DNA of 37,000 nucleotides from Sulfurimonas sp. (GTDB lineage: Bacteria; Campylobacterota; Campylobacteria; Campylobacterales; Sulfurimonadaceae), in NCBI GenBank assembly GCA_027013295.1, contig JALUXP010000111.1, positions 1 through 37,000 on the forward strand, given 5' to 3'. Each line of letters starts with the position of its first letter. The first letter of the stretch is position 1. The position numbers were made by a program, and so were the translations under genes. The notes beneath the pieces are model-generated. The model saw nothing but the letters and a program-made list of their open reading frames with translations, did no database searches and was not told where the DNA came from. Positions 1,978-17,773 of the stretch are shown one piece after another.

Positions 1978-2613
1978 ATGCAATTAGGTTTCCTGGTTGA
2001 TTTACATCTATGTATGGGATGTAAAGGATGTGAGATAGCATGTAAAGTGGAAAATGAAGTTCCTCTAAGTACATGGAGATTACGAGTTAAATATGTAGAT
2101 GTAGGGACATTCCCTGAGACAAAGAGGACTTTTACACCTCTTCGTTGTAACCACTGTGAAAATGCTCCTTGTGTGAGAATTTGTCCAGTATCTGCACTTC
2201 ACTATATAGATAACGGTATTGTAAATATTGACAAAGAGCGTTGTATTGGTTGTGCTGGTTGTGTTATGGCTTGTCCATATGGAGCAATCTATATAGACCC
2301 AGAGACACAAACTGCAGACAAATGTACATATTGTGCACACCGTATTGCATCATCTATGATGCCAGCTTGTGTTGTTGCTTGTCCAGTAGAAGCAAATATT
2401 TTTGGTGATTTAGAAGATCCTAAGTCAAATATATCAAAATATATCCAAAGTCATACTGATGTTCAAGTTCGTAAACCTGAAAAGGGTACTAACCCTCATC
2501 ATTTTTATGTTGGAGCTTCTCAAGTACACCTTAATCCTCTTGCATCAAAAAGAGAAGAAGGTTACAACTTGTTTAACAAAATCACAAAACTTCCACTAGG
2601 AGGGCATCACTAA
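1978..2613 (+). CDS. Four-cluster ferredoxin subunit of a molybdoenzyme complex (PsrB/NrfC/TtrB-like)
   Basis: A 211-residue iron-sulfur electron-transfer subunit. It carries four cysteine groups typical of this family: CMGCKGCEIAC near the N-terminus, CNHCENAPCVRIC, CIGCAGCVMAC, and a split CTYC...CVVAC group. Each should bind a [4Fe-4S] cluster. It would carry electrons between the NrfD-type quinone-site subunit and the molybdopterin subunit encoded next. It has no signal peptide of its own, so it is probably exported as a hitchhiker on the Tat-bearing catalytic subunit. An AAGGAG ribosome site lies at 1967-1972, giving a secure ATG at 1978. The stop overlaps the next gene's ATG by one base. 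The order FeS, membrane, catalytic is the same as in ttrBCA. The substrate cannot be read from this subunit. Confidence 0.9.
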   Translation: MQLGFLVDLHLCMGCKGCEIACKVENEVPLSTWRLRVKYVDVGTFPETKRTFTPLRCNHCENAPCVRICPVSALHYIDNGIVNIDKERCIGCAGCVMACPYGAIYIDPETQTADKCTYCAHRIASSMMPACVVACPVEANIFGDLEDPKSNISKYIQSHTDVQVRKPEKGTNPHHFYVGASQVHLNPLASKREEGYNLFNKITKLPLGGHH

Positions 2614-3536
2614 TGGTACATGAAACTTTAGCTGCAACAAATGCAGTAGTTACTTTGGATGTGGCTTTACCAGACGTATTTTGGGGCTGGTTTGTTACGA
2701 TGAATATGTGGGCAAAAAGTATAGGTACAGGTCTTATCTTTATGCTTTTCCTATTGCTTAGAAAAAATTCTAGTGATATGAGTGGACTTAGAACTCCTGC
2801 AATAATTGTCTCATTTGTTATGATGAATGTTTTCTTACTGTTCACATTGGCTGACCTACATCAACCATTTAGAATGTGGCATATCTTTTTCTATCCTCAT
2901 TGGACTTCAGCAATTACTGTTGGTGCATGGATGGCAACAGTTTTTGTTGGTCTTGAGTTTGTAATGGTTGCTATGATGATTAGAAAAGATAAATGTTTAT
3001 TAACAAACAATGCAATAGCATCTTTTGACAAATTACTTTTTTGGGTAACACTTTTGGCGATTCCTGTCACTCTTTATACTGCGGGCATCATGGCAGAAGC
3101 AACAGCAAGAGAACTATGGCAAATGCCAACTGAATCAGTACAGATGATTTTAGCAGCTACTCTTAGTGGTTCTGCAGCTATTATCTTACTTGGCGGATCT
3201 AAGCTTAGTGAAGAATCGCAAAGATTTTTTGGTGCTATTTTAGGCTTAAGTGCTTTAATGGCATTTGTTATCTACATGTCAGAGTATATCTTTGGTGCTA
3301 TGAAATCTGAAGAGGTAGCAGTAATCTTAGGATATGTAAAAGGTAATGGAGAGTATGCAACTATGTTCTGGATAGGGCAATGGGTAGCTTATATCTTACC
3401 AATGGTACTTGTAGCTTTAAGCAGAACAAGTGGTAGTGCTAGTATTTTAAAATTGGCAGCAATTTTAGCAATAGTTGGTTTATGGATAGTTAAGCATGTT
3501 TGGCTAGTTATACCACAATTATTACCACTAAGTTAG
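2613..3536 (+). CDS. NrfD/PsrC-type integral membrane subunit (quinone-interacting)
   Basis: A 307-residue protein consisting almost entirely of hydrophobic segments, with roughly eight to nine predicted helices. It sits between the ferredoxin and the molybdopterin subunits. This arrangement and composition fit the NrfD/PsrC family, which anchors periplasmic molybdoenzymes and exchanges electrons with the quinone pool without haem. The ATG at 2613 overlaps the previous stop by one base, and the stop is 11 bases before the catalytic subunit's start. Direction of electron flow (reductase or dehydrogenase) cannot be deduced. The family assignment rests on hydrophobicity plus operon position, so it is firm at family level only. 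Confidence 0.87.
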   Translation: MVHETLAATNAVVTLDVALPDVFWGWFVTMNMWAKSIGTGLIFMLFLLLRKNSSDMSGLRTPAIIVSFVMMNVFLLFTLADLHQPFRMWHIFFYPHWTSAITVGAWMATVFVGLEFVMVAMMIRKDKCLLTNNAIASFDKLLFWVTLLAIPVTLYTAGIMAEATARELWQMPTESVQMILAATLSGSAAIILLGGSKLSEESQRFFGAILGLSALMAFVIYMSEYIFGAMKSEEVAVILGYVKGNGEYATMFWIGQWVAYILPMVLVALSRTSGSASILKLAAILAIVGLWIVKHVWLVIPQLLPLS

Positions 3537-3547
3537 GGAGAAAATTA

Positions 3548-6500
3548 ATGTATTTAGAAAGTAGAAGAATATTTTTAAAAGGTGCAGCGTTTACAGTAGC
3601 TGGTGCCGCTATAGCAAGAGGCGTATTTGAAGCTGATGCTGTTGCAGAATCTGTAACAGATTCAAAATTTACGAACACACCAGCTTCATTATCATTTTAT
3701 CCTGATCAATCTGAATGGGATAGTTTTAAAGAATTAGATGGTTCAGATTGGAAACGCGGTGGTATTGAACGCCATGGTGTAAGATCTGCAAGTAACCCTG
3801 ATGGTATACAGGTGAATGACTATACAATCGTTCCAACAGTTTGTTCAAACTGTGAAGCTGGTTGTGGTCTTACTGCATGGGTAAATACAAATGAGTTTAA
3901 AAAAGGGATCTTAACGGTTCGTAAATATATGGGTAATCCACTACATACAGGTTCTCGCGGTAGAAACTGTGCAAAAGGTTATGCTGTAACTTCTCAAATG
4001 TATGATCCAGATCGTATACCATTCCCAATCAAAAGAGCTCCTGGAAGTAAGCGTGGTGAAGGTAAATGGGTTCGTGTAACTTGGGATGAGGCTATGGCCG
4101 CTATCGGTAAGAAAATGCACGATACACTCGCTAAAGGTGATGAGATCTCTAAAAAATCTATCATGTATCATGTTGGTCGTCCAAATGAAAATGGTTTTGG
4201 TCCTCGTGTACCGCAATCTTTAGGTATTGATGGATACAACTCACATACAAATATCTGTTCAGCTGGTGCTCGTGAGGGTACAATCCAGTGGGCAAATGAT
4301 GATAGAAATTCACCAGATTGGGCTAATGCTGATCTTATTTTCTTACAATCATCTCACGCTGCAGATGCAGGACACTATTTTCAACAATCAGCAGGTCTTA
4401 TTGCTGATGCAAGAAAACGCGGTGCAAAAATGGTTGTTATTGACCCTAGAATGAGTAACTCAGCAGGTATGGCTGATTTATGGATTCCTACATGGCCAGG
4501 AACTGAAGCAGCACTTTATCTGTATCTAGTAAACAGAATTGTACATGAAAAAAATATAGATGGAAAAGATTTAGTTCACCATGAATTTGTTAAAGAGTGG
4601 GTTAACTGGGATCGTCTTATGGCAAATAAAGCATATCTTCAAAAGATGATAGGCTATGGTTATATCTCTAAAATGCCAAAAGATGATTCTTATGAGTCAT
4701 TTATTGAAGTGCTTAAAGAGTTATATGCTCCTTATACTAAAGAATTTGTTGTTAAAGAGTGTAAGCTTGAAGGGATGGAATATAAACTTGACCAACTCTG
4801 GGAACTATTTGTTCCAGCAGGTGCAAAAATAGCTAGTTATCTATGGCGTGCAGGAGCAATTGGTCACCGTGGTGGTTGGATGAACACTCGTACTGGTTTC
4901 TTACCATTAGCTCTTGTAGGTGCTATGCGTGGAGATATCGGTGGTGTTGGTATGCACCACTGGCATGAGATTTCCGTAGCAGGAAAAGGTGATAAGGCAA
5001 CAGTTGCTGGAAAACACCCTGCTAAAACTGATGTATGGAATGAACTCGCTTGGCCACCAGAGTACCCAATCTCAACTTATGAGATGGGCTATATGTTGCC
5101 TCAAATTATGATGGATGATGAGTGGCATGCTAAGTGGACAAAAAGAGGTCTTAAGATTCCAAAATCAATGGCTGTATATGTTCCAAGAATGCACAATCCT
5201 TTATGGATTAATCCAGATGGTTTCAGATGGATTGAAGCACTTAAACGAGAAGATAAATTTGAATTATCATTCAACTTATCTCCAACTTGGTCTGAGACTA
5301 ACTGGTATTGTGATTATGTACTTCCAGTTGGACTTGCAGGTGAGAGAAATGATCAACAATCAACTCCATCTAAACCAGAACAGCGTATAGAATTCCGTCA
5401 AGCTGTTCTTCGTGTGGCAGCTGAAAAATCTGGTTGGAAAGCTAAAGATCCAACTCGTGCTACACTAGAAGCTCATATGAAATTTGGTCTTGGTGAAGTT
5501 TGGGAAGAGTCTGAATTTTGGCCAAACCTTATTTTCCACTATGTAGATAAAGATGGTTCACTAGGTATTAGAGATTATTGGGCAAGTAAAAAAGACCCAT
5601 CTCGTTGTGTTAGTGTGCCAGAATACTTTGATGCGGCTCTAAGTTTATTGCCTAGACTTAAAGAGACAGCAACAAAAATGTACAAAGATGAAGAGTATCC
5701 AGTATATTCTTACATCAGAGATCATGGTGCTTGGACGGAAAAAACTAATGTATACAAGCCTCAAGAGGAGGAACTTGAATTTGATGGGACTTATTACCAT
5801 GCACATGGTCATAAGTACAGTAAAAATGAAGTTACTAAAGATGAATTTGGTGCATTATGGGTTAAAGATGGTGAGTTCAAAAAATCAATAGGTGTAGATA
5901 TTGATGGTGAATTGCATGAAGGTTTCCATACATTAAGTAAGAAACTTGAATTTTTCTCAGAATGGTTAGCTGAAGAGTGGAAATGGCCAGAATATGCTAT
6001 CCCTATCTATCCAAGGGATGAAAAAGAAAATGATAAAATGGTACACTTAGTTACTCAAGTTCACCATAAGTACATGAAAGCTGATAATGAATTTGCTTTA
6101 AATACAATTTATCGTTTGCCATACAATATCCATACTCGTTCGGTGAATTCTAAACATCTTATGGAAATCTCTCAAAATCATAATCCTATTTGGATCTATA
6201 CAAAAGATGCTGAGAAACTTGGAATCAAGCGTGGGGATGCTGTTAAAGTACAAATTGAAGATACTCTTTCAGGTATTAAAAGTGGTTACTTTATTGCTAT
6301 GGCTGTACCAACAGAGGCTACTCGTCCTGGCGTACTTGCATGTTCACATCATGCTGGTCGTTGGAAACTACAAGACTCTGTAAAAATTCCTGGTTTTGAA
6401 CATCAACTAGGTGTTATGAGTCTTGGTTCTCCAAAAGTATCTATGACAAATGATGGTAAAAAAGGAACTATGACAACTACTGAGGGGATTAAACCTCATA

Positions 6501-6838
6501 AAGTATGGCAGTTCAAAGAGTACAATAGGGATCTTGATTTTATCTGGTGGGATGGACTTAGTGGTGCATGGCAAAATGCAGTTGCACCTTGTCATCCAGA
6601 TCCAATCGCTGGTAATCATGGTTGGCATCAAAAAGTTATTATAACTAAGGCAACACCAAATGAGAAAATCGGTGATATATCAGTAGATTATGAAGGTAAC
6701 TTCAAAGTTTATCAAGCATGGCGTGATCAACTAACTCGACCACTTAATGCTAGTGATAAACTGCGTCGTCCTTATCACATTAAGCGTCCAGTGAAACCAA
6801 GCCAAAAAGCTTATAGAGTTGAAATAAAAGACGTTTAA
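3548..6838 (+). CDS. Tat-exported molybdopterin oxidoreductase, catalytic subunit (PsrA/TtrA/SreA-like, DMSO reductase superfamily)
   Basis: A 1096-residue catalytic subunit starting at the ATG at 3548. A longer frame open from 3500 overlaps the upstream gene and would hide the signal. The N-terminus has a Tat motif (ESRRIFLKGAA). C99, C102, C106 and C141 supply a [4Fe-4S] cluster, with the conserved lysine K143 beside it. C237 in HTNICSAGAREG is the likely cysteine ligand of molybdenum, as in the polysulfide, thiosulfate and tetrathionate reductase branch. The final 200 residues resemble a molydopterin-dinucleotide-binding domain (LNTIYRLPYNIHTRSVNS). It is longer than typical PsrA or PhsA (about 750-800 residues) and nearer TtrA or SreA. 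Periplasmic location is inferred from the Tat signal. It could also be a sulfite- or arsenic-linked enzyme. The substrate remains open. Confidence 0.88.
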   Translation: MYLESRRIFLKGAAFTVAGAAIARGVFEADAVAESVTDSKFTNTPASLSFYPDQSEWDSFKELDGSDWKRGGIERHGVRSASNPDGIQVNDYTIVPTVCSNCEAGCGLTAWVNTNEFKKGILTVRKYMGNPLHTGSRGRNCAKGYAVTSQMYDPDRIPFPIKRAPGSKRGEGKWVRVTWDEAMAAIGKKMHDTLAKGDEISKKSIMYHVGRPNENGFGPRVPQSLGIDGYNSHTNICSAGAREGTIQWANDDRNSPDWANADLIFLQSSHAADAGHYFQQSAGLIADARKRGAKMVVIDPRMSNSAGMADLWIPTWPGTEAALYLYLVNRIVHEKNIDGKDLVHHEFVKEWVNWDRLMANKAYLQKMIGYGYISKMPKDDSYESFIEVLKELYAPYTKEFVVKECKLEGMEYKLDQLWELFVPAGAKIASYLWRAGAIGHRGGWMNTRTGFLPLALVGAMRGDIGGVGMHHWHEISVAGKGDKATVAGKHPAKTDVWNELAWPPEYPISTYEMGYMLPQIMMDDEWHAKWTKRGLKIPKSMAVYVPRMHNPLWINPDGFRWIEALKREDKFELSFNLSPTWSETNWYCDYVLPVGLAGERNDQQSTPSKPEQRIEFRQAVLRVAAEKSGWKAKDPTRATLEAHMKFGLGEVWEESEFWPNLIFHYVDKDGSLGIRDYWASKKDPSRCVSVPEYFDAALSLLPRLKETATKMYKDEEYPVYSYIRDHGAWTEKTNVYKPQEEELEFDGTYYHAHGHKYSKNEVTKDEFGALWVKDGEFKKSIGVDIDGELHEGFHTLSKKLEFFSEWLAEEWKWPEYAIPIYPRDEKENDKMVHLVTQVHHKYMKADNEFALNTIYRLPYNIHTRSVNSKHLMEISQNHNPIWIYTKDAEKLGIKRGDAVKVQIEDTLSGIKSGYFIAMAVPTEATRPGVLACSHHAGRWKLQDSVKIPGFEHQLGVMSLGSPKVSMTNDGKKGTMTTTEGIKPHKVWQFKEYNRDLDFIWWDGLSGAWQNAVAPCHPDPIAGNHGWHQKVIITKATPNEKIGDISVDYEGNFKVYQAWRDQLTRPLNASDKLRRPYHIKRPVKPSQKAYRVEIKDV

Positions 6839-6845
6839 TTTTTAA

Positions 6846-6875
6846 ATTAAAGCCCACTCCAAGTGGTGCTTTAAT
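6846..6875 (+). terminator. Strong hairpin after the molybdopterin subunit (terminator, attenuator or processing site)
   Basis: A 13-bp stem with a single T bulge and a CCA loop: ATTAAAGC plus CCACT pairs with AGTGG plus GCTTTAAT. It begins eight bases after the stop codon. No run of T follows, so full termination is doubtful. It may protect the upstream transcript or set lower expression of the chaperone and accessory genes. Confidence 0.5.
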
Positions 6876-6880
6876 ATAAT
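6875..6880 (+). promoter_or_regulatory. Candidate -10 box for the accessory half of the molybdoenzyme operon
   Basis: TATAAT directly at the 3' edge of the hairpin, about 40 bases before the TorD-like start. A second TATAAT at 6893-6898 would leave no room for the ribosome site. No clear -35 is present. It could give the accessory genes their own transcript. Confidence 0.35.
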
Positions 6881-6920
6881 CCCCCAAACATTTATAATAT
6901 CCAAAGAAGGTACTTCGTTA

Positions 6921-7571
6921 ATGAATAATGATCTAAAACAACAACAAATTGCTCGTATAAATATATATGCACTACTATCAAGATTGACTATGAATGAAGT
7001 TGATGAAGGGCTATTAAAATCAATAGAAGAAGATGAAAATATTTTATCTTTTTTCCCAACTTATGATAAATGGAAAAAAAGAGATGAATACAATAGAGCA
7101 GAACTTATAGAGCAGTATCTCAATGTTGATTTTACTAACCTTTTCTTACTACATCTTATCCCTTATGAGTCTTTTTATACTAGAGAGGATCAAATGATGG
7201 AGACAGGTGGAGACAACCCTGTTCAAGCTATTTTTAATGCCTTTGAATTTAATGTAGCTCTCGATAAAGCTCGTGTAATGAGTGCAGATCATATTGGTAT
7301 AGAACTAGAGTTTATGTATGAACTGTGTAGAGCAGAACTAAAAGCACTCGAAGCTGATGATATGATAATGGCTACACAGCTCTCACAACTACAACATGGA
7401 TTTATGAAAGACCACATAGTAGAATGGGCACCAATGTACTTACTTAGTGTAAAAAATGAGGCTGGTACTGCATTTTATTTTGATTTAGCTGATTTTGCTT
7501 TAGAGTTTATTCTAAGTGACTTTGAGGGTCTTAACCAACTAAAAGAGAATGAGTATAAATATACAGTATGA
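6921..7571 (+). CDS. TorD/DmsD-family molybdoenzyme chaperone
   Basis: A 216-residue, mostly helical, soluble protein. It shows the TorD-family pattern: an acidic DFTNLFL stretch followed by PYESFYTRE, then DHIGIELEFMYELCRAE, and later GFMKDHIVEWAPMYL. Such chaperones bind the Tat signal of a partner molybdoenzyme and hold it until the cofactor is inserted. The obvious client is the Tat-bearing catalytic subunit just upstream. An AAAGAAGG ribosome site ends ten bases before the ATG. The stop overlaps the following ferredoxin gene by four bases (ATGA). It is not close enough to a named member to give a specific symbol. Confidence 0.8.
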   Translation: MNNDLKQQQIARINIYALLSRLTMNEVDEGLLKSIEEDENILSFFPTYDKWKKRDEYNRAELIEQYLNVDFTNLFLLHLIPYESFYTREDQMMETGGDNPVQAIFNAFEFNVALDKARVMSADHIGIELEFMYELCRAELKALEADDMIMATQLSQLQHGFMKDHIVEWAPMYLLSVKNEAGTAFYFDLADFALEFILSDFEGLNQLKENEYKYTV

Positions 7572-8665
7572 GTTTGCTTACACTTGATGTTTCAAAATGT
7601 GTACATACATCAAATAAATTTGCAATATGTAATAAATGTGTAGAGGTATGCCCAGTAGAGACTATTAAAATAGATGAAAATATAGTTTCTTTTATTCCAA
7701 ATGACTGTGTAGGTTGTGGTGGTTGCGATGCCGTGTGTCCTACTTCTGCATATGATTTAGATGATTTTAAAGCTATAGATTTTGTTTTTACTTTTTTAGA
7801 AAATAACTTAGAGATTTTAAGCTGTAAGAGTGAACTTCCTTGCATAGTAGCTTTAAGTGTAGAAGAGTTATTAAGTTTAGCTTTAATATCTCCAAATAAT
7901 ATCATAGCAGATATTGGAGCTTGTAAAGATTGCTCTATAGGGACAAAAAACCTACCTCTTATAGAAAATCGTATAGAAGAAGTAAACTTTCTCTTAGAGG
8001 CGCTCGAACAAGATAAGAAAATAGCACTTGAAGAGTTAAATAGTGAGATTGAGTTGACTCAAGATGCTTTGAGCAGAAGGAAACTACTCTCAAAAGAGGG
8101 CTTGAAAAAAGTTGTCTCCATCAAAGAACAACTTGATAATGAAGTACTAGCAAGTGATGATGCCCTTAAAGTACATACTGTTACTACTAAAGACATCATC
8201 AAAATAAAACAAAAGAGTATTCCAGATAGAAGAGGTTTACTTCTTATGGCTATGAAAAGGTCTAAGATACCTGAAGTTTATCATACGATAGATATAGACA
8301 ATATTAGTTTTATTAGTCAAAAAGACTTAGATGAGGATACTTGCACAAACTGTCAAATGTGTTATAGAATCTGTCCTACAGGAGCTCTTAGTTCAGATGC
8401 AAAAGGTTCTGTTATTAACTTTAACCCACTCTCTTGCGTTCAGTGCCATAGCTGTCATGATGTGTGTGAGCCAAACTCATTGACTAAAAGGGAGAGCTTT
8501 TCACTTGCTTCTTTTTATGAACCACAAATAGAAACTTTAGTACGATTTACTATTAAGCGATGTGATGAGTGTGGGCTACCTTTTGCGTATAGAGGTGGAG
8601 AGATGATGTGTGATAGATGTCGTGTAGAAGAGGAAGAAGCACATGAATTATGGGGGATTAAGTAG
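7568..8665 (+). CDS. Cytoplasmic polyferredoxin with four [4Fe-4S] motifs and a C-terminal zinc-ribbon-like end
   Basis: A 365-residue soluble protein without a signal sequence. The N-terminal half has two ferredoxin motifs: C11 with C21/C24/C28, and C47/C50/C53/C57. The C-terminal half has two more (CTNCQMCYRICP and CVQCHSCHDVCE). A final CDEC...CDRC pair looks like a zinc ribbon. The middle (about 130-215) is charged and probably helical. A CKDC pair lies near residue 118. It is linked to the chaperone by an ATGA overlap and directly abuts the next ORF. It may deliver electrons or clusters during maturation, or link the complex to cytoplasmic carriers. Polyferredoxin genes are known beside some sulfur reductase operons (sreD), but I cannot show orthology. 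Confidence 0.8.
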   Translation: MSLLTLDVSKCVHTSNKFAICNKCVEVCPVETIKIDENIVSFIPNDCVGCGGCDAVCPTSAYDLDDFKAIDFVFTFLENNLEILSCKSELPCIVALSVEELLSLALISPNNIIADIGACKDCSIGTKNLPLIENRIEEVNFLLEALEQDKKIALEELNSEIELTQDALSRRKLLSKEGLKKVVSIKEQLDNEVLASDDALKVHTVTTKDIIKIKQKSIPDRRGLLLMAMKRSKIPEVYHTIDIDNISFISQKDLDEDTCTNCQMCYRICPTGALSSDAKGSVINFNPLSCVQCHSCHDVCEPNSLTKRESFSLASFYEPQIETLVRFTIKRCDECGLPFAYRGGEMMCDRCRVEEEEAHELWGIK

Positions 8666-9091
8666 ATGGCTGTTGGTTTAGATAGTGTAGAGACAATGAA
8701 TGTAGATGATAAGATAAAAAATGAGACAAAACTTTATGGACTTATAGCTGAACATGCTAGTACCAATCGTCTTTTTGTGATGTTGAACAAAATCATTAAA
8801 GAAAATAGTAGTGATGCAATGATGATCCCTATGAATATACGGGAGGATGATTTCTATTTTACCTTGGTAAATATGAAAAAATCCCATGTCAATGGCGCAT
8901 ATATAGCTGAGGAATATCAAAAAAGTACAGTAGAGCTTTTAGATGAAGCTGATGAGTTTGTTCAAGTATACAATAGATGTGATTTTATAGTGCGTGATGG
9001 TGAAAAATTAGTGGGTACTTATTTGGAAAAAAATGGTAATCTTCTAGGCGAAGATTTAGCTAAAGAGATATACAAACAATTTATAAAATAG
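8666..9091 (+). CDS. Conserved-looking hypothetical protein of the molybdoenzyme operon (141 aa)
   Basis: I do not recognise this protein. It is acidic, soluble and 141 residues long, with no signal peptide, no membrane segment and a single cysteine in YNRCDFI. A mixed alpha/beta pattern is likely. The ATG directly follows the TAG of the polyferredoxin gene (TAGATG), so translation is probably coupled. The next gene begins 11 bases after its stop. Position implies a role in maturation, cofactor handling or regulation of the upstream complex. The sequence itself gives no catalytic motif. Confidence 0.7.
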   Translation: MAVGLDSVETMNVDDKIKNETKLYGLIAEHASTNRLFVMLNKIIKENSSDAMMIPMNIREDDFYFTLVNMKKSHVNGAYIAEEYQKSTVELLDEADEFVQVYNRCDFIVRDGEKLVGTYLEKNGNLLGEDLAKEIYKQFIK

Positions 9092-9102
9092 AGGAGTATG
9101 AT

Positions 9103-9567
9103 ATGGATATGAAAGATTTAAATGAATTAAGAGGCGAATTTGAGCAGATGCAAAAACGAGCAATGGATCAAGCTTGTGTAGATGATAGTTGCGTAACAGA
9201 GGCTTCAGAAGATTATCCAGACTATTTAAGAGCTATATATGCTGAGATTATGCCACCTGCAAAAAGTGGTATCTACTTTTCAAGATGGGACATGAAAAGA
9301 ATGGCATCTGAACTTGATGAGTCTTTTGCTATTGATGTCAGAGAACGCATGTTTAAAAACTTTATGCAGTGGGTTGCTACACCTGATGATTTCCGTTTAG
9401 TTATTGAACAATTTTCAAAAAACATGGATATGAAATGTGATATGTATAAAGAATATAGTGAAAAATATCCATCAACAAAAGAGATCTTTGATACTAAAAT
9501 TAACAAAGTTGAAAATTCAAAAAAATATTTTGAAAAGGTTTATCAAGAATTCTTTACAGAGGATTAA
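9103..9567 (+). CDS. Hypothetical protein at the end of the molybdoenzyme operon (154 aa)
   Basis: Unrecognised, 154 residues, soluble and probably largely helical. It has two nearby cysteines (ACVDDSC, near residues 24-29) and one later cysteine. Charged helices fill the C-terminal half. A GAGGAG ribosome site at 9091-9096 supports the ATG at 9103. An ATG at 9098 is out of frame and stops within five codons. The gene ends in a convergent three-base overlap with the cytochrome gene on the other strand. It could be another TorD-like or redox-linked maturation factor, but that is only context. Confidence 0.68.
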   Translation: MDMKDLNELRGEFEQMQKRAMDQACVDDSCVTEASEDYPDYLRAIYAEIMPPAKSGIYFSRWDMKRMASELDESFAIDVRERMFKNFMQWVATPDDFRLVIEQFSKNMDMKCDMYKEYSEKYPSTKEIFDTKINKVENSKKYFEKVYQEFFTED

Positions 9568-9932
9568 AAATCTACTCCAAGAAGGTCCTCTTCTATATCA
9601 TACTTTTTTGATGTATCCTTTTTTAACTTTGAGAGATATATTGATAGATTTTTAAAATCTTTTTGATTTAATGATTTTACAAATGTAAACATAATCTCTT
9701 GCTTTTGTGTCATAGCTATCCCTTTTTTAAAATTGTTTAATTTTTGCATTAAATCATCTTGTTTTTGATGTGCTAATCGTGGGTAGTAACTACTCCCTTC
9801 ACCATTTGTACCATGACAATTACTGCATCCATGTTCAAAATAAAGATTTTTTCCAAGTTCATAAGTATCCGCACTAGCAGCATAAACGACATACTGCAAC
9901 AATAAAAATAGTGATAATCCTTTGGGTATCAT
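9564..9932 (-). CDS. Monohaem class I cytochrome c (c553-like), exported
   Basis: 122 residues with a hydrophobic signal segment (about 4-20) and a single haem-binding motif CSNCH (C36, C39, H40). A later Met (M74 or M81) is a candidate axial ligand. The G-x-x-YYPRLAHQ region after the haem is typical of small c553/c4-like electron carriers in the periplasm. It is the last gene of the minus-strand Bat cluster. Its ATG overlaps the BatD stop by four bases (ATGA). The last 25 residues are charged and lysine/acid-rich. The electron partner is unknown. Confidence 0.85.
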   Translation of the reverse strand: MIPKGLSLFLLLQYVVYAASADTYELGKNLYFEHGCSNCHGTNGEGSSYYPRLAHQKQDDLMQKLNNFKKGIAMTQKQEIMFTFVKSLNQKDFKNLSIYLSKLKKDTSKKYDIEEDLLGVDF

Positions 9933-11071
9933 GACAATTCCTTCAATATTTTAGTTTTGATCTTTTCAAAGTTATGTGAAGCTTTATTATATACTATATC
10001 TTCCAATATTTCTGCTTCTTTGGAAAAATTATTTTTATGTTTGCTTACAAGGATGAACAATAGCTTTTTAGCTGTTTTAGCATCTTTTACATCTAAAAAA
10101 TCTTTAGAGTGCTTTTTTCTTTTAAAAGAAAATGATTGAAATTTTGCACTGATAAATCCACTCATAAAGATGATAATATATATCAAAAACTCTTTGAGGG
10201 CATCTATATTTATGAGTGGTGTCGTTTGAGGATATTCCTCTTTGTCTAAAAGTAGTGCAGTATCAATCTTCGTAACTTGTATAGTATGTCCTTTGGTGGT
10301 TAGGGTATAGTATTTACCTGTTTTGGGAGAGTAGGCTCGGAAGATCACTTTAGGTATCGTAAAATTTTCTTTTGCACTTAGGGCATAAATATATTCTCTC
10401 TTGAATGCATCTCCTTGTTGCATATATTTAGAGTAAATATCATTAATCTCAGAAAATATAGTGACATTTTTGATGCTTGTGATAGGTTTTAAATGTGCAT
10501 CTTCATAACCAACTCCCTCAAGAGTATAGGATATATTGATGGATTCATATTGATTTATCTTTGTTTTTTCTATATGCTCTTTGAGGGTAAAATCACCAAC
10601 TAAGTCAACCTCTTTTTGAAGTTTTTTTACCATGATATTAAAGGGCTTAATCTTTACTTTTGTATTGTAAGTTTGTATAGCAATACTATCATCATGATCA
10701 TCTACATAACTATTGGCAATAGCTTTGTTGCTTGCCGTTCGTATGGTGAAGTTAAAATCTACAGATATTTTTTTTGCTTTTAAAGGAAATACCAAGTAAG
10801 TATAAGATGTTTTTGTATCATGATATTTTTTATCATTAATTTTTTTATTGAGGAGTATTATTTTATAGTCATCACTCTTTTTTGGTGCTACTAAAAACAT
10901 CATATTATCTGTGTGATCTTTTTGCTTTGCATAGAAGGTTATTGTAACTGCTTCTTTCTCATAGACTTTAGTTTTATTTGATGTTATAAAATACGAAGCA
11001 AGATCTTTTGCATCGGCGTTTGTTATAAATAATAAAAATACTAAAAGTATATTACCACGGCTCTTTTTCAT
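9929..11071 (-). CDS. batD: BatD-like protein with signal peptide and C-terminal membrane helix
   Basis: 380 residues from the ATG at 11071. A longer frame from 11275 would overlap the previous gene deeply and would bury the signal peptide ([20 protein letters not shown]). The mature part is rich in beta strands, and one membrane helix lies near residues 315-335 (FLIYIIIFMSGFISA). That layout fits the BatD family of the Bacteroides aerotolerance cluster. The first 20 bases overlap the 3' end of the BatB gene. The downstream cytochrome c overlaps by four bases. BatD is thought to work with the von Willebrand A-domain proteins BatA and BatB in the periplasm, but its biochemical role is not settled. 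Confidence 0.7.
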   Translation of the reverse strand: MKKSRGNILLVFLLFITNADAKDLASYFITSNKTKVYEKEAVTITFYAKQKDHTDNMMFLVAPKKSDDYKIILLNKKINDKKYHDTKTSYTYLVFPLKAKKISVDFNFTIRTASNKAIANSYVDDHDDSIAIQTYNTKVKIKPFNIMVKKLQKEVDLVGDFTLKEHIEKTKINQYESINISYTLEGVGYEDAHLKPITSIKNVTIFSEINDIYSKYMQQGDAFKREYIYALSAKENFTIPKVIFRAYSPKTGKYYTLTTKGHTIQVTKIDTALLLDKEEYPQTTPLINIDALKEFLIYIIIFMSGFISAKFQSFSFKRKKHSKDFLDVKDAKTAKKLLFILVSKHKNNFSKEAEILEDIVYNKASHNFEKIKTKILKELS

Positions 11072-12608
11072 CAGTGTATCCTTTGTTGATTTTCTCATAT
11101 GCTTTATAGGTAAATTTATAATGAGATTTTTTTGTATTGTTCTTTTTGATTTTAGCGAGAGTTTGTTGAGAACTTTTACTAGATCCGCTTCCGTTTGAAT
11201 GTTTATTACCTGATCTGTTGGAACTTTTTTTAGACTTACCATTTTTTTTATTTTTTTTATTTTCTTTTTTGACATTACTTTTTTGCTTTGTGATTTTATT
11301 TTTAGTTGGCATTATTTTTGAAATATCTTGAGCATTTTTAAGTTTTAATTTTCTGATGAGAGAAAGATTGTATAGGGCATCAGCATCATAACCAAAGGCT
11401 AGCGTATTGACATAGTATTGTTTAGCCTCTTCATAGTGTTTGAGTTTGGCGGCACAGTTACCTAGGTTATATAAAATTTTCTGTTTTAGTTGAGGGCTTT
11501 GTGTCTGAATTTGAGTATAAAATTTTACAGCATCTCTGTAGTAACCAGCTTTATAGTAAGCCGAAGCTATATCGTAATAACTTTTAGTGGAGGGTTCAAT
11601 CTTTTCAAAGAGATAGGCTGCTTTTTTATAGTGCTTTTGTTCATATTGTTTGTGTGCTTCTTTGAGATAGTAAAAGTCAAAAAGAGATGCTTGAGTTTTG
11701 TTTGGCATCAAGACAAATAAAGGGATGAGATAAAGAAATCTCTGTGCTATTTTTGTTATAGATAGAAAGTAGAGCACTATGGCAAGGCTAAGGGGTATAT
11801 AAAAAAGCTCTCGATAAGTTCTTACGCGTATTTGCTCTTTATCTGTTTTTTTAGATGCTATATCGTTTGAGAGTTGGTCTATGCTATTTAAAGAGGTAAG
11901 TTCATAGTATTTTCCACCTGTTGCATTGGCTAAATCTACTAGCATTGGGTTAATTTTGGATATGACTATCGATTCATGCACATCCTTAATGTACCTTCCA
12001 TCTTTTTTGAGTGCTGTGCCTTTTTGAGTAGCAGTCGCTACAATATAAAGAATAATATTGTTTCTTTTGACAATCTTAGCAAGAGAATGAATATCATGCT
12101 CATCTCCCCCATCACTAAAGATAATAAGGTTTTTTTCTTTTTGTGAGAGTGTAGCAATACGCTTTAAAAGATTTTTTAAGTTTGTACTTTTTGTTAATAT
12201 ATACTTAGGATTGAGTGCATCAAGGGCTAAGAGACTTATCTCTGTATCTGTAGTAGGTGGCGATATTAAAAGGGTAGATGATGTAAATGCAAAGAGTGTA
12301 AATCTGTCTTTTGGATGTTGGTGTATGAGCCTTTTTATCGCTTCTTTAGAGAGGATGTATCTACTTGGCTTGAGGTCATCTGCCTGCATTGAGTAAGAAG
12401 CATCAATAGCAATGATATAGTCACGGGAATTGAAATTTTGTTTTACATAACTGTTTTCATAAGCTGGCCTAGCGATAGCTAAAAACATTAAAGCGAGACT
12501 TATGTACAGAAGTTTTGTTTGTTTATGCTTTTGAGTAGATTGCTGCTTGTTGTAGATAAGGTAGATAGGTATTAACCCAAAGAGTATCCATCCGTTAAGC
12601 AAAGTCAT
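11052..12608 (-). CDS. batB: BatB-BatC fusion: von Willebrand factor A domain plus TPR repeats
   Basis: 518 residues. Two N-terminal membrane segments (about 4-19 and 34-47) precede a VWA domain whose metal-binding MIDAS motif reads DASYS (69-73), with a later SDGGDEHD motif. A third hydrophobic stretch (about 270-300) is followed by a TPR-like region (about 325-430). The C-terminal tail of about 75 residues is very rich in lysine, serine and asparagine. In other bacteria the VWA part (BatB) and TPR part (BatC) are separate genes, so this is a natural fusion. The ATG directly follows the stop of batA. It probably forms a membrane complex with BatA and BatD. Confidence 0.8.
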   Translation of the reverse strand: MTLLNGWILFGLIPIYLIYNKQQSTQKHKQTKLLYISLALMFLAIARPAYENSYVKQNFNSRDYIIAIDASYSMQADDLKPSRYILSKEAIKRLIHQHPKDRFTLFAFTSSTLLISPPTTDTEISLLALDALNPKYILTKSTNLKNLLKRIATLSQKEKNLIIFSDGGDEHDIHSLAKIVKRNNIILYIVATATQKGTALKKDGRYIKDVHESIVISKINPMLVDLANATGGKYYELTSLNSIDQLSNDIASKKTDKEQIRVRTYRELFYIPLSLAIVLYFLSITKIAQRFLYLIPLFVLMPNKTQASLFDFYYLKEAHKQYEQKHYKKAAYLFEKIEPSTKSYYDIASAYYKAGYYRDAVKFYTQIQTQSPQLKQKILYNLGNCAAKLKHYEEAKQYYVNTLAFGYDADALYNLSLIRKLKLKNAQDISKIMPTKNKITKQKSNVKKENKKNKKNGKSKKSSNRSGNKHSNGSGSSKSSQQTLAKIKKNNTKKSHYKFTYKAYEKINKGYTDEKEPW

Positions 12609-13535
12609 TTAAACTCTCCTTTTTGAGAGCAGATACAAAAGCAATAAAATAGCAAAAGCCAATGGATAGGTAAAGAGCATCTGTTTGTTAAGATAATGTT
12701 GTGAACGGATAGAACTTGGTTCGAGTGCATCTAGTTTTTGATAAACATCTTCTAGTGCATCTTTGTTTTTAGCACTAAAAGAGACTCCACCTGTATCTTT
12801 TGCGATTTTTTGCAAAAGTTTTTTGTCATAGTCCTTTTCATCTCCAAGTCCAATCGTATATATCTTTACACCAAGCTTTTTAGACTCATTTACAGCATCT
12901 TTGATTTTGGTTGAGCCACTGTTTTGGTAACCATCTGTTATGAGTATTATAATTTTATTTTTTGCCTTTGATTTTGTAAGTAGATCTAAAGATTGTTTTA
13001 GTCCATCGCCTATGGCAGTAGAACTTCCAGCCATCCCAACTTCCAAAAAATCTAACATATATACCAATGAATGCATATCGTAAGTAATAGGTACTGGACT
13101 AAAAGCGTAGGAGCCAAATACTACTACTCCAACATTGTCATCATATCTACTTGTAACAAATTTTTTAAGAAGGTTTTCCAAAATGCTAAATTTACTTTTT
13201 TTGTATGTCTCATCACTAAATCCACTCTCATTCATAGAGCCACTTGTATCAAGAGCAAAAACTAGGTCTCGACCTTTTCTTTGTTGAGACTCTTTAGAAT
13301 CATAGCTGATAGGTGAAGCTAAGGCCGTGATGAGTAGCGTTAAAATAAGCGAATAAAATAGTTTTTCTTTGTTGATCCAATTGGTTTGTTTTGAAAAAAG
13401 ATGGATATGAGGAAAAATAATTCTTTTTATACTCAGAGGGCATTTATAGATGCATATAATGAGAACTAAGAGTAGAAATGCAAGGGGGTATTCAAATTCA
13501 AAATGCACTAGGAAGCCCACCACATTCTCAGCCAT
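12609..13535 (-). CDS. batA: BatA-like membrane protein with von Willebrand factor A domain
   Basis: 308 residues from the ATG at 13535, with GGGG four bases upstream. A TTG three codons earlier is less likely. Membrane segments lie near 17-30 and 58-74, and a C-terminal helix near 285-303. The VWA domain has an intact MIDAS site, D96-T-S98-G-S100, plus the STAIGDG and ITDG motifs. BatA proteins partner BatB in the aerotolerance/Bat cluster, often with a MoxR ATPase. No moxR or DUF58 gene is adjacent here. The 5' end overlaps the preceding thioredoxin gene by 28 bases. The protein probably displays its VWA domain on the periplasmic side. Confidence 0.83.
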   Translation of the reverse strand: MAENVVGFLVHFEFEYPLAFLLLVLIICIYKCPLSIKRIIFPHIHLFSKQTNWINKEKLFYSLILTLLITALASPISYDSKESQQRKGRDLVFALDTSGSMNESGFSDETYKKSKFSILENLLKKFVTSRYDDNVGVVVFGSYAFSPVPITYDMHSLVYMLDFLEVGMAGSSTAIGDGLKQSLDLLTKSKAKNKIIILITDGYQNSGSTKIKDAVNESKKLGVKIYTIGLGDEKDYDKKLLQKIAKDTGGVSFSAKNKDALEDVYQKLDALEPSSIRSQHYLNKQMLFTYPLAFAILLLLYLLSKRRV

Positions 13536-14002
13536 AATCCCCAAAGACTTGTATAACCAACTTCAGAAAAAACTAACTCACCCTTTGTGTTGTAGATAAA
13601 AGTAGTCGGGTAGGCGGGTACTTTATACTCCTTTGCCAAAGAGCCATCATTATCATTATAAATTTTATATGAGAGTTGATGGGCATTCATATATTGCTCC
13701 AATGAAGCATCTGAACCTGATTTTACTGCGATAGTGAGTAGATCGTAATGTTTTGCTATGGTTTGGATATTTGGGGCTTCTAATTTGCATATAGGACACC
13801 AAGTAGCCCAAAAGTGGATTAGTAAAGGTTTCTTACGAGGAAATGTATAGTGTGTGCCATCTATAAGTGTGAGGTTTATCTGTTTTAATGGGGTTTTGCT
13901 CAAATCGCGAGACTTGTAGAGACTTATAACATTGGCAAAGATAGTTATCATTACTGCAGTGAGAACTATCTCTTTAAAATATTTTATCAGTTTTAGTTTC
14001 AT
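13508..14002 (-). CDS. Membrane-anchored TlpA/ScsD-like thioredoxin-fold protein
   Basis: 164 residues. An N-terminal anchor (about 10-27) leads to a thioredoxin domain with the active site WATWCPIC (C69, C72). A cis-proline motif (VPAYPT) comes later. These features fit periplasmic TlpA, ResA or ScsD-type disulfide reductases or oxidases. The ATG at 14002 is 18 bases after the Pit gene stop. The 3' end overlaps batA by 28 bases, so the two are translationally linked. It may keep cysteines of exported partners, such as the cytochrome c at the end of this cluster, in the right redox state. The partner is inferred from neighbourhood only. Confidence 0.82.
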   Translation of the reverse strand: MKLKLIKYFKEIVLTAVMITIFANVISLYKSRDLSKTPLKQINLTLIDGTHYTFPRKKPLLIHFWATWCPICKLEAPNIQTIAKHYDLLTIAVKSGSDASLEQYMNAHQLSYKIYNDNDGSLAKEYKVPAYPTTFIYNTKGELVFSEVGYTSLWGLWLRMWWAS

Positions 14003-14020
14003 AAATAATCTCTAATAAAC

Positions 14021-15667
14021 TTATAGCATTATCCCTTTAATCATAAAAAATAAAACAGCAGCTATCACTGCTGCAGCAGGTACTGTGATGATCCAAGCTG
14101 CTATAATCTTTTTGATAGCATCTCTTTTGACATATTCAACTTTTTTAACTTTTCGGATATGCTTTTTAGTTGTTTTGATAATTTTCTGTTCATCTTTTAT
14201 CATTTTGTAAAGTGTAGCTATGCGTTGAAAGTCTTGAGGTGTTTTCTCCTCTTTAGCCTCTAAAGTGCTCAATTCTAACTTGTAGGCAATTTTTGTTTGT
14301 CTTTCATCTTTGATAATCTCTTTATCTTCTTCTATGGAGTTGCCATCATCTCGTAGATGGAGCCACTCTCTTAAAAAACCAACACCAAATATACCACCAA
14401 TAGCAATATGAGTTGAACTTACTGGAAGTCCAAGTTGAGAAGCGATGATAACAGTGATAGAGGCTGCCATGGCTATGGAAAAAGCTCTTATCTGGTCTAG
14501 TTCTGTTATCTCTGAACCAACGGTTCGTATCAGTTTAGGTCCATAGAGTGCTAGCCCTAAAGCGATACCAAGTGCACCAACGCCCATAACCCATAAAGGG
14601 ATAGAAGCTTTAGAAGAGATGCCACCGTTGACCACTGCATCGTTGATAGCAGCTAAGGGACCTATAGCATTTGCTACATCATTAGCACCATGAGCAAAAC
14701 TTAGAAGTGCCGCAGAAAAGATCAGTGGAATAGTAAAAAGGGTATTGACTGATGCTTTATTGTTCTCAAGCATAGTGATGCTCTTAGCCATTTTAGTTTT
14801 TACAAACAGATACACAATAATGCTAACCGCACCACCAAGGATAAGTGCAGTAGTAAAGCTAGGTTTTTTCGTCATCTCTAGTGTTACTAATGGGATAAAA
14901 TTAAGTATTTCAACCACCTGTGGCCAAATCTTTTTAAGACCTTTTAGTGTAAGATATGTTACAAATGCCCAAGACATAATGGCAACAAAAAAAGGTACAT
15001 ATGTTTTAGCCGCTTGTATTTTATCTTCTTTAAAAAGGATAGACTTTTTGATGGAATAAAGAAAGATTGCTGCAATAACTCCTCCTAAAACAGGTGAAAT
15101 AACCCATGAAGCAGCAATCTTTGCCATGGTTGACCAAGAGACAATGCTAAATCCAGCGGCAGCAATCCCAGCTCCCATAACACCACCAACAATAGAGTGT
15201 GTTGTAGATACAGGTGCACGCATTGCAGTTGCAAAATTAAGCCATAAGGCGGCAGCTAAAAGAGCAGCCATCATAGCCCAAATAAATGGATCGGGATTTC
15301 CACCAAATGCAGAGATGTCGATGATCCCTTTTTTGATGGTTTTGACAACTTCACCACCAGCGATGAGTGCACCAGCAGCTTCAAATATTGCTGCTATAAC
15401 AATAGCCATAGCCATAGTCATAGCACGAGATCCAACTGCTGGACCTACATTGTTAGCTACATCATTTGCTCCTATGTTCATAGCCATATAAGCACCAATA
15501 AGTGCTGCAATAGCTAAAAACATATTGTTAGAAACACCGCCATTATCTAGAAAACTAAATGTTAAAACTCCAATCATAAAAAAAAGAGCAAAACCTAAGC
15601 GGATAAAATCAGTACCATTCTTTTTTAATGCTTCACGCTCTAGTTTTTCTATAGTTGAAATTTCCAT
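14021..15667 (-). CDS. pitA: Pit-family inorganic phosphate (or sulfate) transporter
   Basis: A 548-residue inner-membrane transporter. The two inverted Pit signatures are present: GANDVANNVGPAVGSR (starting at residue 66) and HGANDVANAIGPLAA in the second half. Many hydrophobic helices surround them. A long charged, coiled-coil-like loop (roughly residues 435-515) precedes the last helix. Pit proteins use a proton or sodium gradient to import phosphate, and some relatives move sulfate. No PhoU-like gene (DUF47) is beside it. The ATG directly follows the stop of the cyclophilin gene (TAG then ATG), so it is part of the same operon. Substrate is by family only. Confidence 0.88.
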   Translation of the reverse strand: MEISTIEKLEREALKKNGTDFIRLGFALFFMIGVLTFSFLDNGGVSNNMFLAIAALIGAYMAMNIGANDVANNVGPAVGSRAMTMAMAIVIAAIFEAAGALIAGGEVVKTIKKGIIDISAFGGNPDPFIWAMMAALLAAALWLNFATAMRAPVSTTHSIVGGVMGAGIAAAGFSIVSWSTMAKIAASWVISPVLGGVIAAIFLYSIKKSILFKEDKIQAAKTYVPFFVAIMSWAFVTYLTLKGLKKIWPQVVEILNFIPLVTLEMTKKPSFTTALILGGAVSIIVYLFVKTKMAKSITMLENNKASVNTLFTIPLIFSAALLSFAHGANDVANAIGPLAAINDAVVNGGISSKASIPLWVMGVGALGIALGLALYGPKLIRTVGSEITELDQIRAFSIAMAASITVIIASQLGLPVSSTHIAIGGIFGVGFLREWLHLRDDGNSIEEDKEIIKDERQTKIAYKLELSTLEAKEEKTPQDFQRIATLYKMIKDEQKIIKTTKKHIRKVKKVEYVKRDAIKKIIAAWIITVPAAAVIAAVLFFMIKGIML

Positions 15668-17136: not shown

Positions 17137-17150
17137 AAGGAAAGGATGCT

Positions 17151-17178
17151 TGATTGTCGCATAAAGTAGCGACAATCA
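17151..17178 (-). terminator. Perfect 10-bp hairpin after the HU gene
   Basis: TGATTGTCGC and GCGACAATCA form a perfect 10-bp stem around an eight-base loop, six bases after the HU stop codon. There is no T run on the minus strand after it. It may terminate only partly and allow some read-through into the next gene, 15 bases on. Confidence 0.6.
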
Positions 17179-17184
17179 GAGGTG

Positions 17185-17469: not shown

Positions 17470-17514
17470 AAATCGACCCTTGAATTAATAAAATTTTTCC
17501 GAAATTATTTATAA

Positions 17515-17537
17515 AGTTACTTTAGGCAGTTACTTTA
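17515..17537 (-). promoter_or_regulatory. Direct repeat upstream of hup (possible regulator or promoter region)
   Basis: AGTTACTTTA occurs twice (17515-17524 and 17528-17537) with a 13-base period, 46-68 bases upstream of the HU start. A TTATAAAT that could serve as -10 lies just inside it on the minus strand. Confidence 0.3.
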
Positions 17538-17564
17538 AATAATTCAGCTAAGACACTTTATTAT

Positions 17565-17771: not shown

Positions 17772-17773
17772 TT

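What the first reader, a model, noticed from the sequence alone, without database searches (positions are those of the whole stretch)
1978..6838. Tat-exported, unusually long molybdoenzyme of unknown substrate in B-C-A order
The catalytic subunit is 1096 residues, longer than PsrA/PhsA, with a Cys molybdenum ligand (C237) and a full four-cluster partner and NrfD anchor. The gene order equals ttrBCA, yet I do not recognise the tetrathionate-specific sequence. It may be a separate branch of sulfur, selenium or arsenic enzymes.
Basis: partly seen in the sequence, partly recalled or inferred. Interest (0 to 1): 0.55.

Follow-up and report, generated by a model that had tools for sequence, protein, structure and literature searches.

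The report
Misfiled sulfur enzyme of vent bacteria
The window holds a membrane-anchored molybdenum enzyme that most Sulfurimonas bacteria carry and that papers call "polysulfide reductase", but its sequence belongs to a separate, untested branch of sulfur and arsenic enzymes, and in the draft genome shown here no hydrogenase was found that such a reductase would normally draw on.

Summary
B (1978-2613), C (2613-3536) and a Tat-signal-bearing 1096-residue A (3548-6838, Cys237) are present. The operon goes on with TorD, an ArxB'-type polyferredoxin, an AroE-like one-domain protein (X) and a new small protein (Y). It is not rare: 76 of 79 good-quality genomes of the window's genus carry it, and 85 of 397 of the phylum.

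Genome lengths, Mo-cysteine positions and anchor counts identify it with the literature's "PsrA1B1CDE" of S. hydrogeniphila NW10 and "PsrA1B1C1" of Sulfurovum indicum. Yet it is not a PsrA/PhsA (AU p 0.002 even for sister position), not TtrA (51 of 1750 bits), not SoeA. It forms its own lineage with Tat-less relatives in Thermomicrobium, Rhodococcus and haloarchaea; one of two trees joins it to ArxA (96/92).

Best reading: a menaquinone-linked periplasmic oxidoreductase of zero-valent sulfur, here mainly oxidising. The own draft shows no NiFe-hydrogenase, Sulfurovum NBC37-1 has the operon behind a sox cluster, and S. indicum does not significantly induce it on sulfur reduction. Substrate and direction are inferred. 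A plain polysulfide reductase is nearly as likely.

The parts
1978..2613 (+). B: 211-aa four-cluster [4Fe-4S] electron-transfer subunit
   Evidence: best NCBIfam hit TtrB 207.6 bits, cut-off 416 not met. In the B tree it groups with the fused B-C proteins of Thermomicrobium/Rhodococcus/Natrinema (92/93).
2613..3536 (+). C: 307-aa NrfD-type membrane anchor (quinone side)
   Evidence: Pfam NrfD 56.7 bits over cut-off; the only PF03916 match at E 0.001 in the own genome.
3548..6838 (+). A: 1096-aa Mo-bisPGD catalytic subunit, Tat signal SRRIFLKG, presumed Mo ligand Cys237
   Evidence: separate lineage.
6921..7571 (+). TorD-type assembly chaperone, 216 aa
   Evidence: Pfam Nitrate_red_del 56.5 bits over cut-off; NCBIfam TorD 53.6 of 132.
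7568..8665 (+). Fd: 365-aa polyferredoxin of the ArxB' type
   Evidence: HMM of 24 homologues against the ORFs of 17 fetched stretches hits the Azoarcus cluster ferredoxin (E 4.5e-36) and the Sulfuricella arx-cluster ferredoxin (E 3.3e-28); the next best are B subunits from E 3e-7. tblastn against plasmids: E 1e-11 and 2e-7 to the same two.
8666..9091 (+). X: 141-aa lone AroE (shikimate dehydrogenase) substrate-binding-like domain
   Evidence: NCBIfam shikimate dehydrogenase E 7.4e-6, far below its cut-off; longer homologues in L085 and L099 hit the Shikimate_DH model, and L099 and L084 the Shikimate_dh_N model, all sub-threshold.
9103..9567 (+). Y: 154-aa conserved protein without family match
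   Evidence: No Pfam hit at E 0.001 and no NCBIfam hit at E 0.01; homologues at the end of the same cassette in Campylobacterota; no hit in the outside-phylum clusters searched.

Best explanation
A-B-C is a periplasm-facing complex iron-sulfur molybdoenzyme. A (Mo-bisPGD, Cys ligand) is exported folded by Tat with B in tow, B passes electrons over four FeS clusters, and C (NrfD) exchanges them with menaquinone. TorD holds apo-A for cofactor loading. The ArxB'-type polyferredoxin has no export signal that I saw and is presumably cytoplasmic, perhaps for maturation. X and Y are helpers of unknown role. The substrate is most likely zero-valent (sulfane) sulfur, that is polysulfide or persulfide. 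In this organism the net direction is probably oxidation, feeding electrons from sulfur into the menaquinone pool beside Sox, although the same enzyme could run backwards where H2 is available. Shown: genes, export motif, conserved Cys, conservation, lineage. Inferred: Mo ligation, electron path, substrate, direction. A is a separate lineage from PsrA/PhsA despite its name in the literature.
For: A match in nearly every good genome of a genus of sulfur oxidisers (76 of 79). The own draft shows no NiFe-hydrogenase (0 matches at E 1e-10, four candidates scored; the six comparison genomes all have matches) but two SoxY and two PF00174 enzymes of SoxC/SorA type. It is present in S. autotrophica OK10 (contig length 2,153,198 = published genome), reported to use only O2 as acceptor and not H2. 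In Sulfurovum NBC37-1 (identity by recalled length) the operon lies on the same strand behind a cytochrome c (soxX place)-SoxY-SoxZ-SoxA-SoxB-like run, with six genes between (a porin-like ORF, MBL-fold, two cytochrome/thioredoxin proteins, DsrE, DUF302). The distant Rhodococcus homologue likewise sits beside DsrE, TusA, thioredoxin, rhodanese and MBL genes, and two of three haloarchaeal ones beside rhodanese and TauE. In S. indicum the homologue is highly expressed (FPKM 2504-17,874) and its 1.21-2.10-fold rise in sulfur reduction is not significant, whereas PsrA-lineage psrA3 rises significantly.
Against: No substrate or direction has been measured for this lineage as far as I saw. NW10 respires S0 with H2 and this is its only PF03916-anchored enzyme; a later paper says its psrA1B1CDE serves sulfur reduction. 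Four of 15 searched genomes that carry A have no PF00174 (SoxC/SorA-type) enzyme at E 1e-5 (G074, G036, G057, G139), so the link to Sox is not general, and G036 does have hydrogenases. S. autotrophica also carries a PsrA-lineage enzyme and a hydrogenase without respiring sulfur, so gene content and phenotype need not match. The window genome is a 134-contig draft (99.35% complete by estimate), so the missing hydrogenase could be an assembly gap. Most of the phylum sample (312 of 397) lacks the enzyme at the E 1e-100 used. ArxA, with which one tree joins it, is an arsenic enzyme.
Confidence: 0.4

Rival explanations
1. It is what the literature calls it in function: a dedicated respiratory polysulfide/S0 reductase, taking electrons from menaquinol (from H2 or other donors) and releasing sulfide, merely of a different lineage than Wolinella PsrA.
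For: NW10 (G402, contig 2,342,011) grows on H2 + S0. This is its only PF03916 (NrfD) match at E 0.001 and, with the 949-aa NapA-type protein, one of two of its six PF00384 proteins with a twin-arginine motif. PMC10045233 states that NW10 uses periplasmic psrA1B1CDE and cytoplasmic psrA2B2 for S8 reduction (the primary paper was not read). Four of 15 carriers have no SoxC/SorA-type enzyme.
Against: No NiFe-hydrogenase found in the own draft genome. S. autotrophica, limited to O2, has it. S. indicum induces psrA3 significantly, not this one. Lineage distinct from PsrA/PhsA, AU p 0.0019 against sister position.
Confidence: 0.32
2. A sulfite:menaquinone oxidoreductase, doing in the periplasm what SoeABC does in the cytoplasm.
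For: Two of three haloarchaeal homologues beside TauE/SafE sulfite exporters and rhodaneses, Rhodococcus homologue beside MBL-fold and sulfur-transfer genes. Quinone-linked sulfite oxidation by a related Cys-ligated enzyme is known (SoeABC; PMC8076601 passages).
Against: NW10 has the enzyme, is reported to lack SorAB and does not grow on sulfite. Grouping with SoeA is rejected (AU p 0.009, one SoeA-type row named by its xsc neighbourhood). That row lacks a Tat signal and has a DmsC-type anchor.
Confidence: 0.14
3. An arsenic (or selenium) oxyanion oxidoreductase related to Arx.
For: The second tree puts the family with ArxA (96/92; the first tree left this unresolved). The polyferredoxin is ArxB'-like. 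The Azoarcus KH32C relative lies beside ars genes and an arxXSR-like regulator set.
Against: ArrA model 55 of 1600 bits. No ars genes or arx-type regulators recognised among the window ORFs to 12 kb. Near-universal in a genus of sulfur oxidisers, and the closer Rhodococcus and haloarchaeal relatives mostly have sulfur neighbours.
Confidence: 0.07
4. A tetrathionate reductase (TtrBCA) with diverged sequence.
For: Same B-C-A order; B scores best with TtrB (208 bits); sister position to TtrA not firmly rejected (AU p 0.057).
Against: A 51 of 1750 bits, B 208 of 416, C 34 of 314. TtrA-type rows, the arsenic-linked one included, form their own clade at 100/100 without it. NW10 does not use tetrathionate as a donor; no ttrRS beside it.
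Confidence: 0.03

Closest known systems
PsrA1B1CDE / PsrA1B1C1 / PsrABC of Sulfurimonas hydrogeniphila NW10, Sulfurovum indicum ST-419 and Sulfurovum NBC37-1 (literature names)
   Same: By sequence the same family: 90% (presumed NW10, L192) and 68% (presumed NBC37-1, L131) identity of A, same seven-gene cassette; S. indicum by Mo-Cys position 247 and gene spacing.
   Different: The name implies membership of the PsrA lineage, which the trees do not support; PMC10045233 says no twin-arginine motif, but the matching G225 protein has SRRTFLKG.
ArxB'ABCD arsenite oxidase (Sulfuricella denitrificans plasmid, L100)
   Same: Cys-ligated A, TorD, NrfD anchor, related polyferredoxin ArxB'; A groups with it at 96/92 in one tree.
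   Different: Gene order B'-A-B-C-D, arxXSR-type regulators; the window A is far below the ArrA model cut-off.
Tat-less A + fused B-C complexes of Thermomicrobium roseum, Rhodococcus jostii RHA1, Natrinema and Halomicrococcus plasmids (unnamed)
   Same: Sister lineage, 35-39% over 91-96% of the length; near-identical SHTN[IV]CS active-site stretch.
   Different: No Tat signal, B and C on one ORF, no TorD, X or Y hit; aerobic hosts (recalled).
TtrABC tetrathionate reductase
   Same: B-C-A order, similar A length, TtrB-like B.
   Different: All three subunits below equivalog cut-offs; separate clade.
PsrABC / PhsABC (Wolinella/Campylobacterota type)
   Same: Three-subunit plan, Cys ligand, Tat export.
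   Different: A about 760-820 aa in the rows used; separate lineage (AU p 0.0019 against sister position).
SoeABC sulfite dehydrogenase
   Same: Quinone-linked, Cys-ligated, similar A length.
   Different: Cytoplasmic, DmsC-type anchor; grouping rejected with the one context-named reference available.

Membership tests
Complex iron-sulfur molybdoenzyme (CISM) | Mo-bisPGD A with Fe4S4 domain, four-cluster B, membrane anchor C | tested here: met
   (sequence features; cofactors not measured)
TtrABC | Subunits over the NCBIfam equivalog cut-offs | tested here: not met
   A 50.7 of 1750, B 207.6 of 416, C 34 of 314 bits
TtrABC | A nests in the TtrA/SrdA clade | tested here: not met
   Five TtrA-type rows form a 100/100 clade without it. 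Sister position only weakly disfavoured (AU p 0.057).
TtrABC | ttrRS regulators beside the genes | tested here: not met
   Upstream neighbour is a receiver-PAS-HD protein
PsrA/PhsA | A over the PhsA cut-off / in the PsrA-PhsA clade | tested here: not met
   116 of 694 bits; PhsA and psrA3/psrA4-type rows form a clade without it (98/91); AU p 0.0019
PsrA/PhsA | Polysulfide or thiosulfate reduction | not testable with these tools
   No assay; literature assignment by transcripts and homology in the passages I saw
SoeABC | Cytoplasmic A, DmsC-type anchor, SoeA clade | tested here: not met
   Tat motif, NrfD anchor, AU p 0.009 with one SoeA-type row
ArxA/ArrA | A over the ArrA cut-off | tested here: not met
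   55.4 of 1600 bits
ArxA/ArrA | A nests in the ArxA/ArrA clade | tested here: inconclusive
   One ArxA row: unresolved, joined at 96/92; nesting cannot be judged with one row
ArxA/ArrA | ArxB'-type polyferredoxin in the cluster | tested here: met
   E 3.3e-28 to the Sulfuricella protein
ArxA/ArrA | arxXSR regulators or ars genes beside the cluster | tested here: not met
   None recognised among window ORFs to 12 kb; judged from the ORF list, not every ORF was scanned
SreA, SrrA, SrdA | Nesting with the characterised proteins | not tested
   Sequences not obtained; PMC10100899 places archaeal SreA and SrrA with PsrA/PhsA, SrdA with TtrA, bacterial SreA with SoeA

The most novel reading that the evidence does not exclude
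A fifth lineage of Cys-ligated chalcogen molybdoenzymes: a sulfane-sulfur:quinone dehydrogenase core to Sulfurimonas-type sulfur oxidation, exported and anchored by separate B and C in Campylobacterota but Tat-less with a fused B-C in aerobic actinobacteria, Thermomicrobium and haloarchaea. It has passed as 'polysulfide reductase', so sulfur-cycle surveys that read psrA as sulfur reduction would be reading part of sulfur oxidation backwards.
Probability: 0.3. Interest if true: 0.65.

Novelty: new variant of a known kind. Interest (0 to 1): 0.45.

Why it matters
The gene is nearly universal in Sulfurimonas, a genus described as predominant at vents and in redoxclines, and at least one field study read Sulfurimonas psrABC transcripts as sulfur reduction (whether those transcripts are this lineage was not checked). 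If the lineage oxidises sulfane sulfur instead, such readings change sign. The family also gives a testable link between Arx-type arsenic enzymes and sulfur enzymes (shared ArxB'-type polyferredoxin), and a natural pair of exported and Tat-less versions of one enzyme. The isolates identified here make a knock-out and an assay directly possible.

Tried and rejected
Structure prediction failed to help. A with 7 rows gave mean pLDDT 32.3, X with 5 rows 41.8; no fold search was run on either. Rfam over the window: no match. tRNA: none. ArrA model in eight Campylobacterota genomes: nothing rang, controls included, so it shows nothing. The sulfite idea looked attractive from the SOR activity of S. 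autotrophica until its genome showed two PF00174 enzymes, which with the published sorAB can explain the activity. X and Y were not found in the Azoarcus, Sulfuricella, Thermomicrobium, Rhodococcus or haloarchaeal clusters. NBC37-1 'Cys-257' in PMC10045233 does not match the 251 I get from the first ATG of G264; unexplained. The literature search listings and the passages opened showed no paper that separates this lineage from PsrA; the primary NW10 (2021) and NBC37-1 (2010) papers were not read. Wells 2023 (passages) mentions seemingly novel lineages without naming this one in what I saw.

Rows dropped before trees: the fragmentary S. mangrovi and Caballeronia ORFs, two own-genome DMSORs and five close Campylobacterota rows; the second tree used 36 chosen rows. 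The AU groups were named after seeing the first tree.
Full report
Observation. The three genes are present as described. A starts at ATG 3548 and has 1096 aa, with SRRIFLKG at its N-terminus, the Fe4S4 cysteines and Cys237 in SHTNICSAGAR. B has 16 cysteines in four groups. The operon continues on the same strand with TorD, a 365-aa polyferredoxin (Fd), X and Y to 9567.

Distribution. A search of 397 genomes of the phylum found the protein in 85 at E 1e-100, from 18 of 68 genera. Of the 52 genomes of the window's own family (f1) in that search, 50 have it. In the genus, 114 of 135 genomes match, and 76 of 79 at 90% completeness or more and 5% contamination or less. Of 28 fetched Campylobacterota stretches (27 distinct; L011 and L082 are one locus), 16 (15 distinct) show all seven genes by tblastn; others are cut by contig ends, lack X or Fd, or (L095, L097, L098) show only B-C-A. 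Of eight further stretches, three have all seven and five only B-C-A. Two versions of A exist: one aligned over its full length (62-98%), one with a different last 150 residues or so (about 62-67% over residues 1-950).

Which named organisms carry it. G129 has one contig of 2,153,198 bases, the published length of S. autotrophica OK10. G402 has 2,342,011 bases; the NW10 paper prints 2,432,011 in its text and 2.34 Mb in its table, so I take G402 as S. hydrogeniphila NW10. In G225 the published four Mo-cysteine positions of S. indicum ST-419 (171, 247, 183, 195) all occur: 171, 183 and 195 in three PsrA-like proteins and 247 in the window-type protein; an 842-aa protein of G225 also has 183. The distance from A to soxY1 (34 kb) also fits the locus tags of PsrA1 and soxY1, 35 genes apart. 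So G225 is probably S. indicum or a very close relative, and PsrA1 is the window family. As I map them, the paper's order of the four numbers does not follow its locus tags. Its statement that none has a twin-arginine motif is not what I see: the window-type protein has SRRTFLKG and the psrA3/psrA4-type proteins SRRKFLQG. G264 (2,562,277), G328 (2,201,561) and G036 (1,877,931) match lengths that I recall for Sulfurovum NBC37-1, S. denitrificans and Nitratiruptor SB155-2; these rest on recall.

Link to the literature names. NW10 (G402) has six PF00384 matches, of which two have a twin-arginine motif, a NapA-type protein and the window type, and one PF03916 match, the C gene of this operon. Its periplasmic 'psrA1B1CDE' is therefore this cassette by elimination; the primary paper was not held. 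Han and Perner (passages) report that every sequenced Sulfurimonas has a PSR homologue, with S. autotrophica near Nitratiruptor and a non-vent group near Sulfuricurvum, which resembles my two versions.

Lineage. NCBIfam: PhsA 116 of 694 bits, TtrA 51 of 1750, ArrA 55 of 1600. In a 42-row tree the family (with Thermomicrobium, Rhodococcus, haloarchaea) is a 100/100 clade, joined by Azoarcus KH32C at 97/98, apart from TtrA (100/100), PhsA (100/100), SoeA and ArxA, whose mutual order is unresolved. In a 36-row tree that adds the psrA2, psrA3 and psrA4 types, psrA3/psrA4 types fall with PhsA (98/91), while the window family falls with Azoarcus, an 842-aa protein of G225 and ArxA (96/92). AU tests: with PsrA/PhsA p 0.0019, with SoeA p 0.0091, with TtrA p 0.057. 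The groups were chosen after the first tree, SoeA and ArxA have one row each, the SoeA row is named by its xsc neighbourhood, and treekit warned of long branches. The B tree agrees on the sister relation to the fused proteins (92/93) but is weak deeper down.

Relatives outside the phylum. A plasmid search gave ten records, one of them Sulfurovum. Thermomicrobium, Rhodococcus, Natrinema and Halomicrococcus have A without a Tat motif and B and C on one ORF. Rhodococcus has DsrE, TusA, rhodanese, thioredoxin and MBL-fold genes around it; two of the three haloarchaeal regions opened show rhodanese and TauE, the third does not, nor does Thermomicrobium. Azoarcus KH32C has B-C-A-TorD and an Fd next to ars genes and an arx-like regulator set. 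The window's Fd family is ArxB'-like; arxAB on the Sulfuricella plasmid is stated in PMC6397845 (passages).

Function. Sulfur is favoured by genus-wide presence in sulfur oxidisers, by the sox neighbourhood in NBC37-1 (cytochrome c, SoxY, SoxZ, SoxA-type, SoxB-like, then six genes with MBL, thioredoxins and DsrE, then B-C-A), and by the sulfur-handling genes beside the Rhodococcus and two haloarchaeal relatives. Direction: the own draft has no PF00374 match at E 1e-10 while the six others searched do; it also shows no PhsA/PsrA at E 1e-80 and a single PF03916 match. S. autotrophica uses only O2 and not H2, yet has one hydrogenase and a PsrA-lineage enzyme, which weakens the argument from that strain. 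S. indicum: psrA3 is significantly induced on S0; this one is high in both conditions, with a 1.21-2.10-fold rise that is not significant. Against: NW10 reduces S0 with H2 and has no other PF03916-anchored candidate. Four of 15 searched carriers have no SoxC/SorA-type PF00174 enzyme, so the Sox partnership is not general. Sulfite and tetrathionate are disfavoured because NW10 grows on neither as donor although it is reported to lack SorAB. I rank a sulfane-sulfur:menaquinone oxidoreductase, net oxidative here, slightly over a one-way polysulfide reductase.

Papers. Passages only unless noted: PMC10045233 (also section 22 whole), PMC4584964, PMC12998232, PMC9751629, PMC12403661, PMC7331816 (also abstract and outline), PMC10100899, PMC6397845, PMC9948710, PMC3035374 (also abstract), PMC7952632 (also section 8 whole), PMC9122950, PMC10066037, PMC7174374, PMC8076601. 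Lifestyles of the plasmid hosts, the naming of the Arx regulators and general CISM mechanism are from general knowledge.

Noticed in passing
8666-9091; L085:11596-12435; L099:2916-3746: X is a lone AroE substrate-binding-like domain. In two other genomes the same operon slot holds 277-280-aa versions that still show a Rossmann glycine motif, so the window form looks like a shikimate dehydrogenase paralogue reduced to one domain.
   Followed up: partly
G000 (own genome): No NiFe-hydrogenase match at E 1e-10 in a draft rated 99.35% complete, unlike six compared Campylobacterota genomes.
   Followed up: partly
358-1740: Divergent receiver-PAS-HD regulator upstream of B; a similar gene also lies divergently upstream of B in L098.
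   Followed up: no
L189:8777-11900: An 842-aa Tat-type molybdoenzyme with its own B and no C gene beside it in the presumed S. indicum genome, grouping with Azoarcus KH32C and the window lineage; not obviously among the four Psr enzymes of the paper.
   Followed up: partly
L050 (Azoarcus KH32C plasmid): B-C-A-TorD and Fd cluster flanked by ars genes and a substrate-binding protein/histidine kinase/sigma-54 set like arxXSR: a possible arsenic enzyme of a sister branch.
   Followed up: partly
L075 (Citrobacter freundii plasmid): TtrBCA-like genes next to ars genes; A scores 663 of 1750 bits against TtrA.
   Followed up: no
L048 (Sulfurovum mangrovi plasmid): The A gene is matched in two pieces and only a 713-aa ORF is recovered, so this copy may be broken or misassembled.
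   Followed up: no
window B 1978-2613 versus A: B is more conserved than A in the two strains looked at: 94% versus 90% in presumed NW10, 89% versus 60% in presumed S. denitrificans.
   Followed up: no
9564-9932 and 9929-12608, minus strand: Convergent small c-type cytochrome-like gene (CSNCHG) and large ORFs that look like a BatA/von Willebrand-type set behind the cassette (recognised by eye, not scanned).
   Followed up: no
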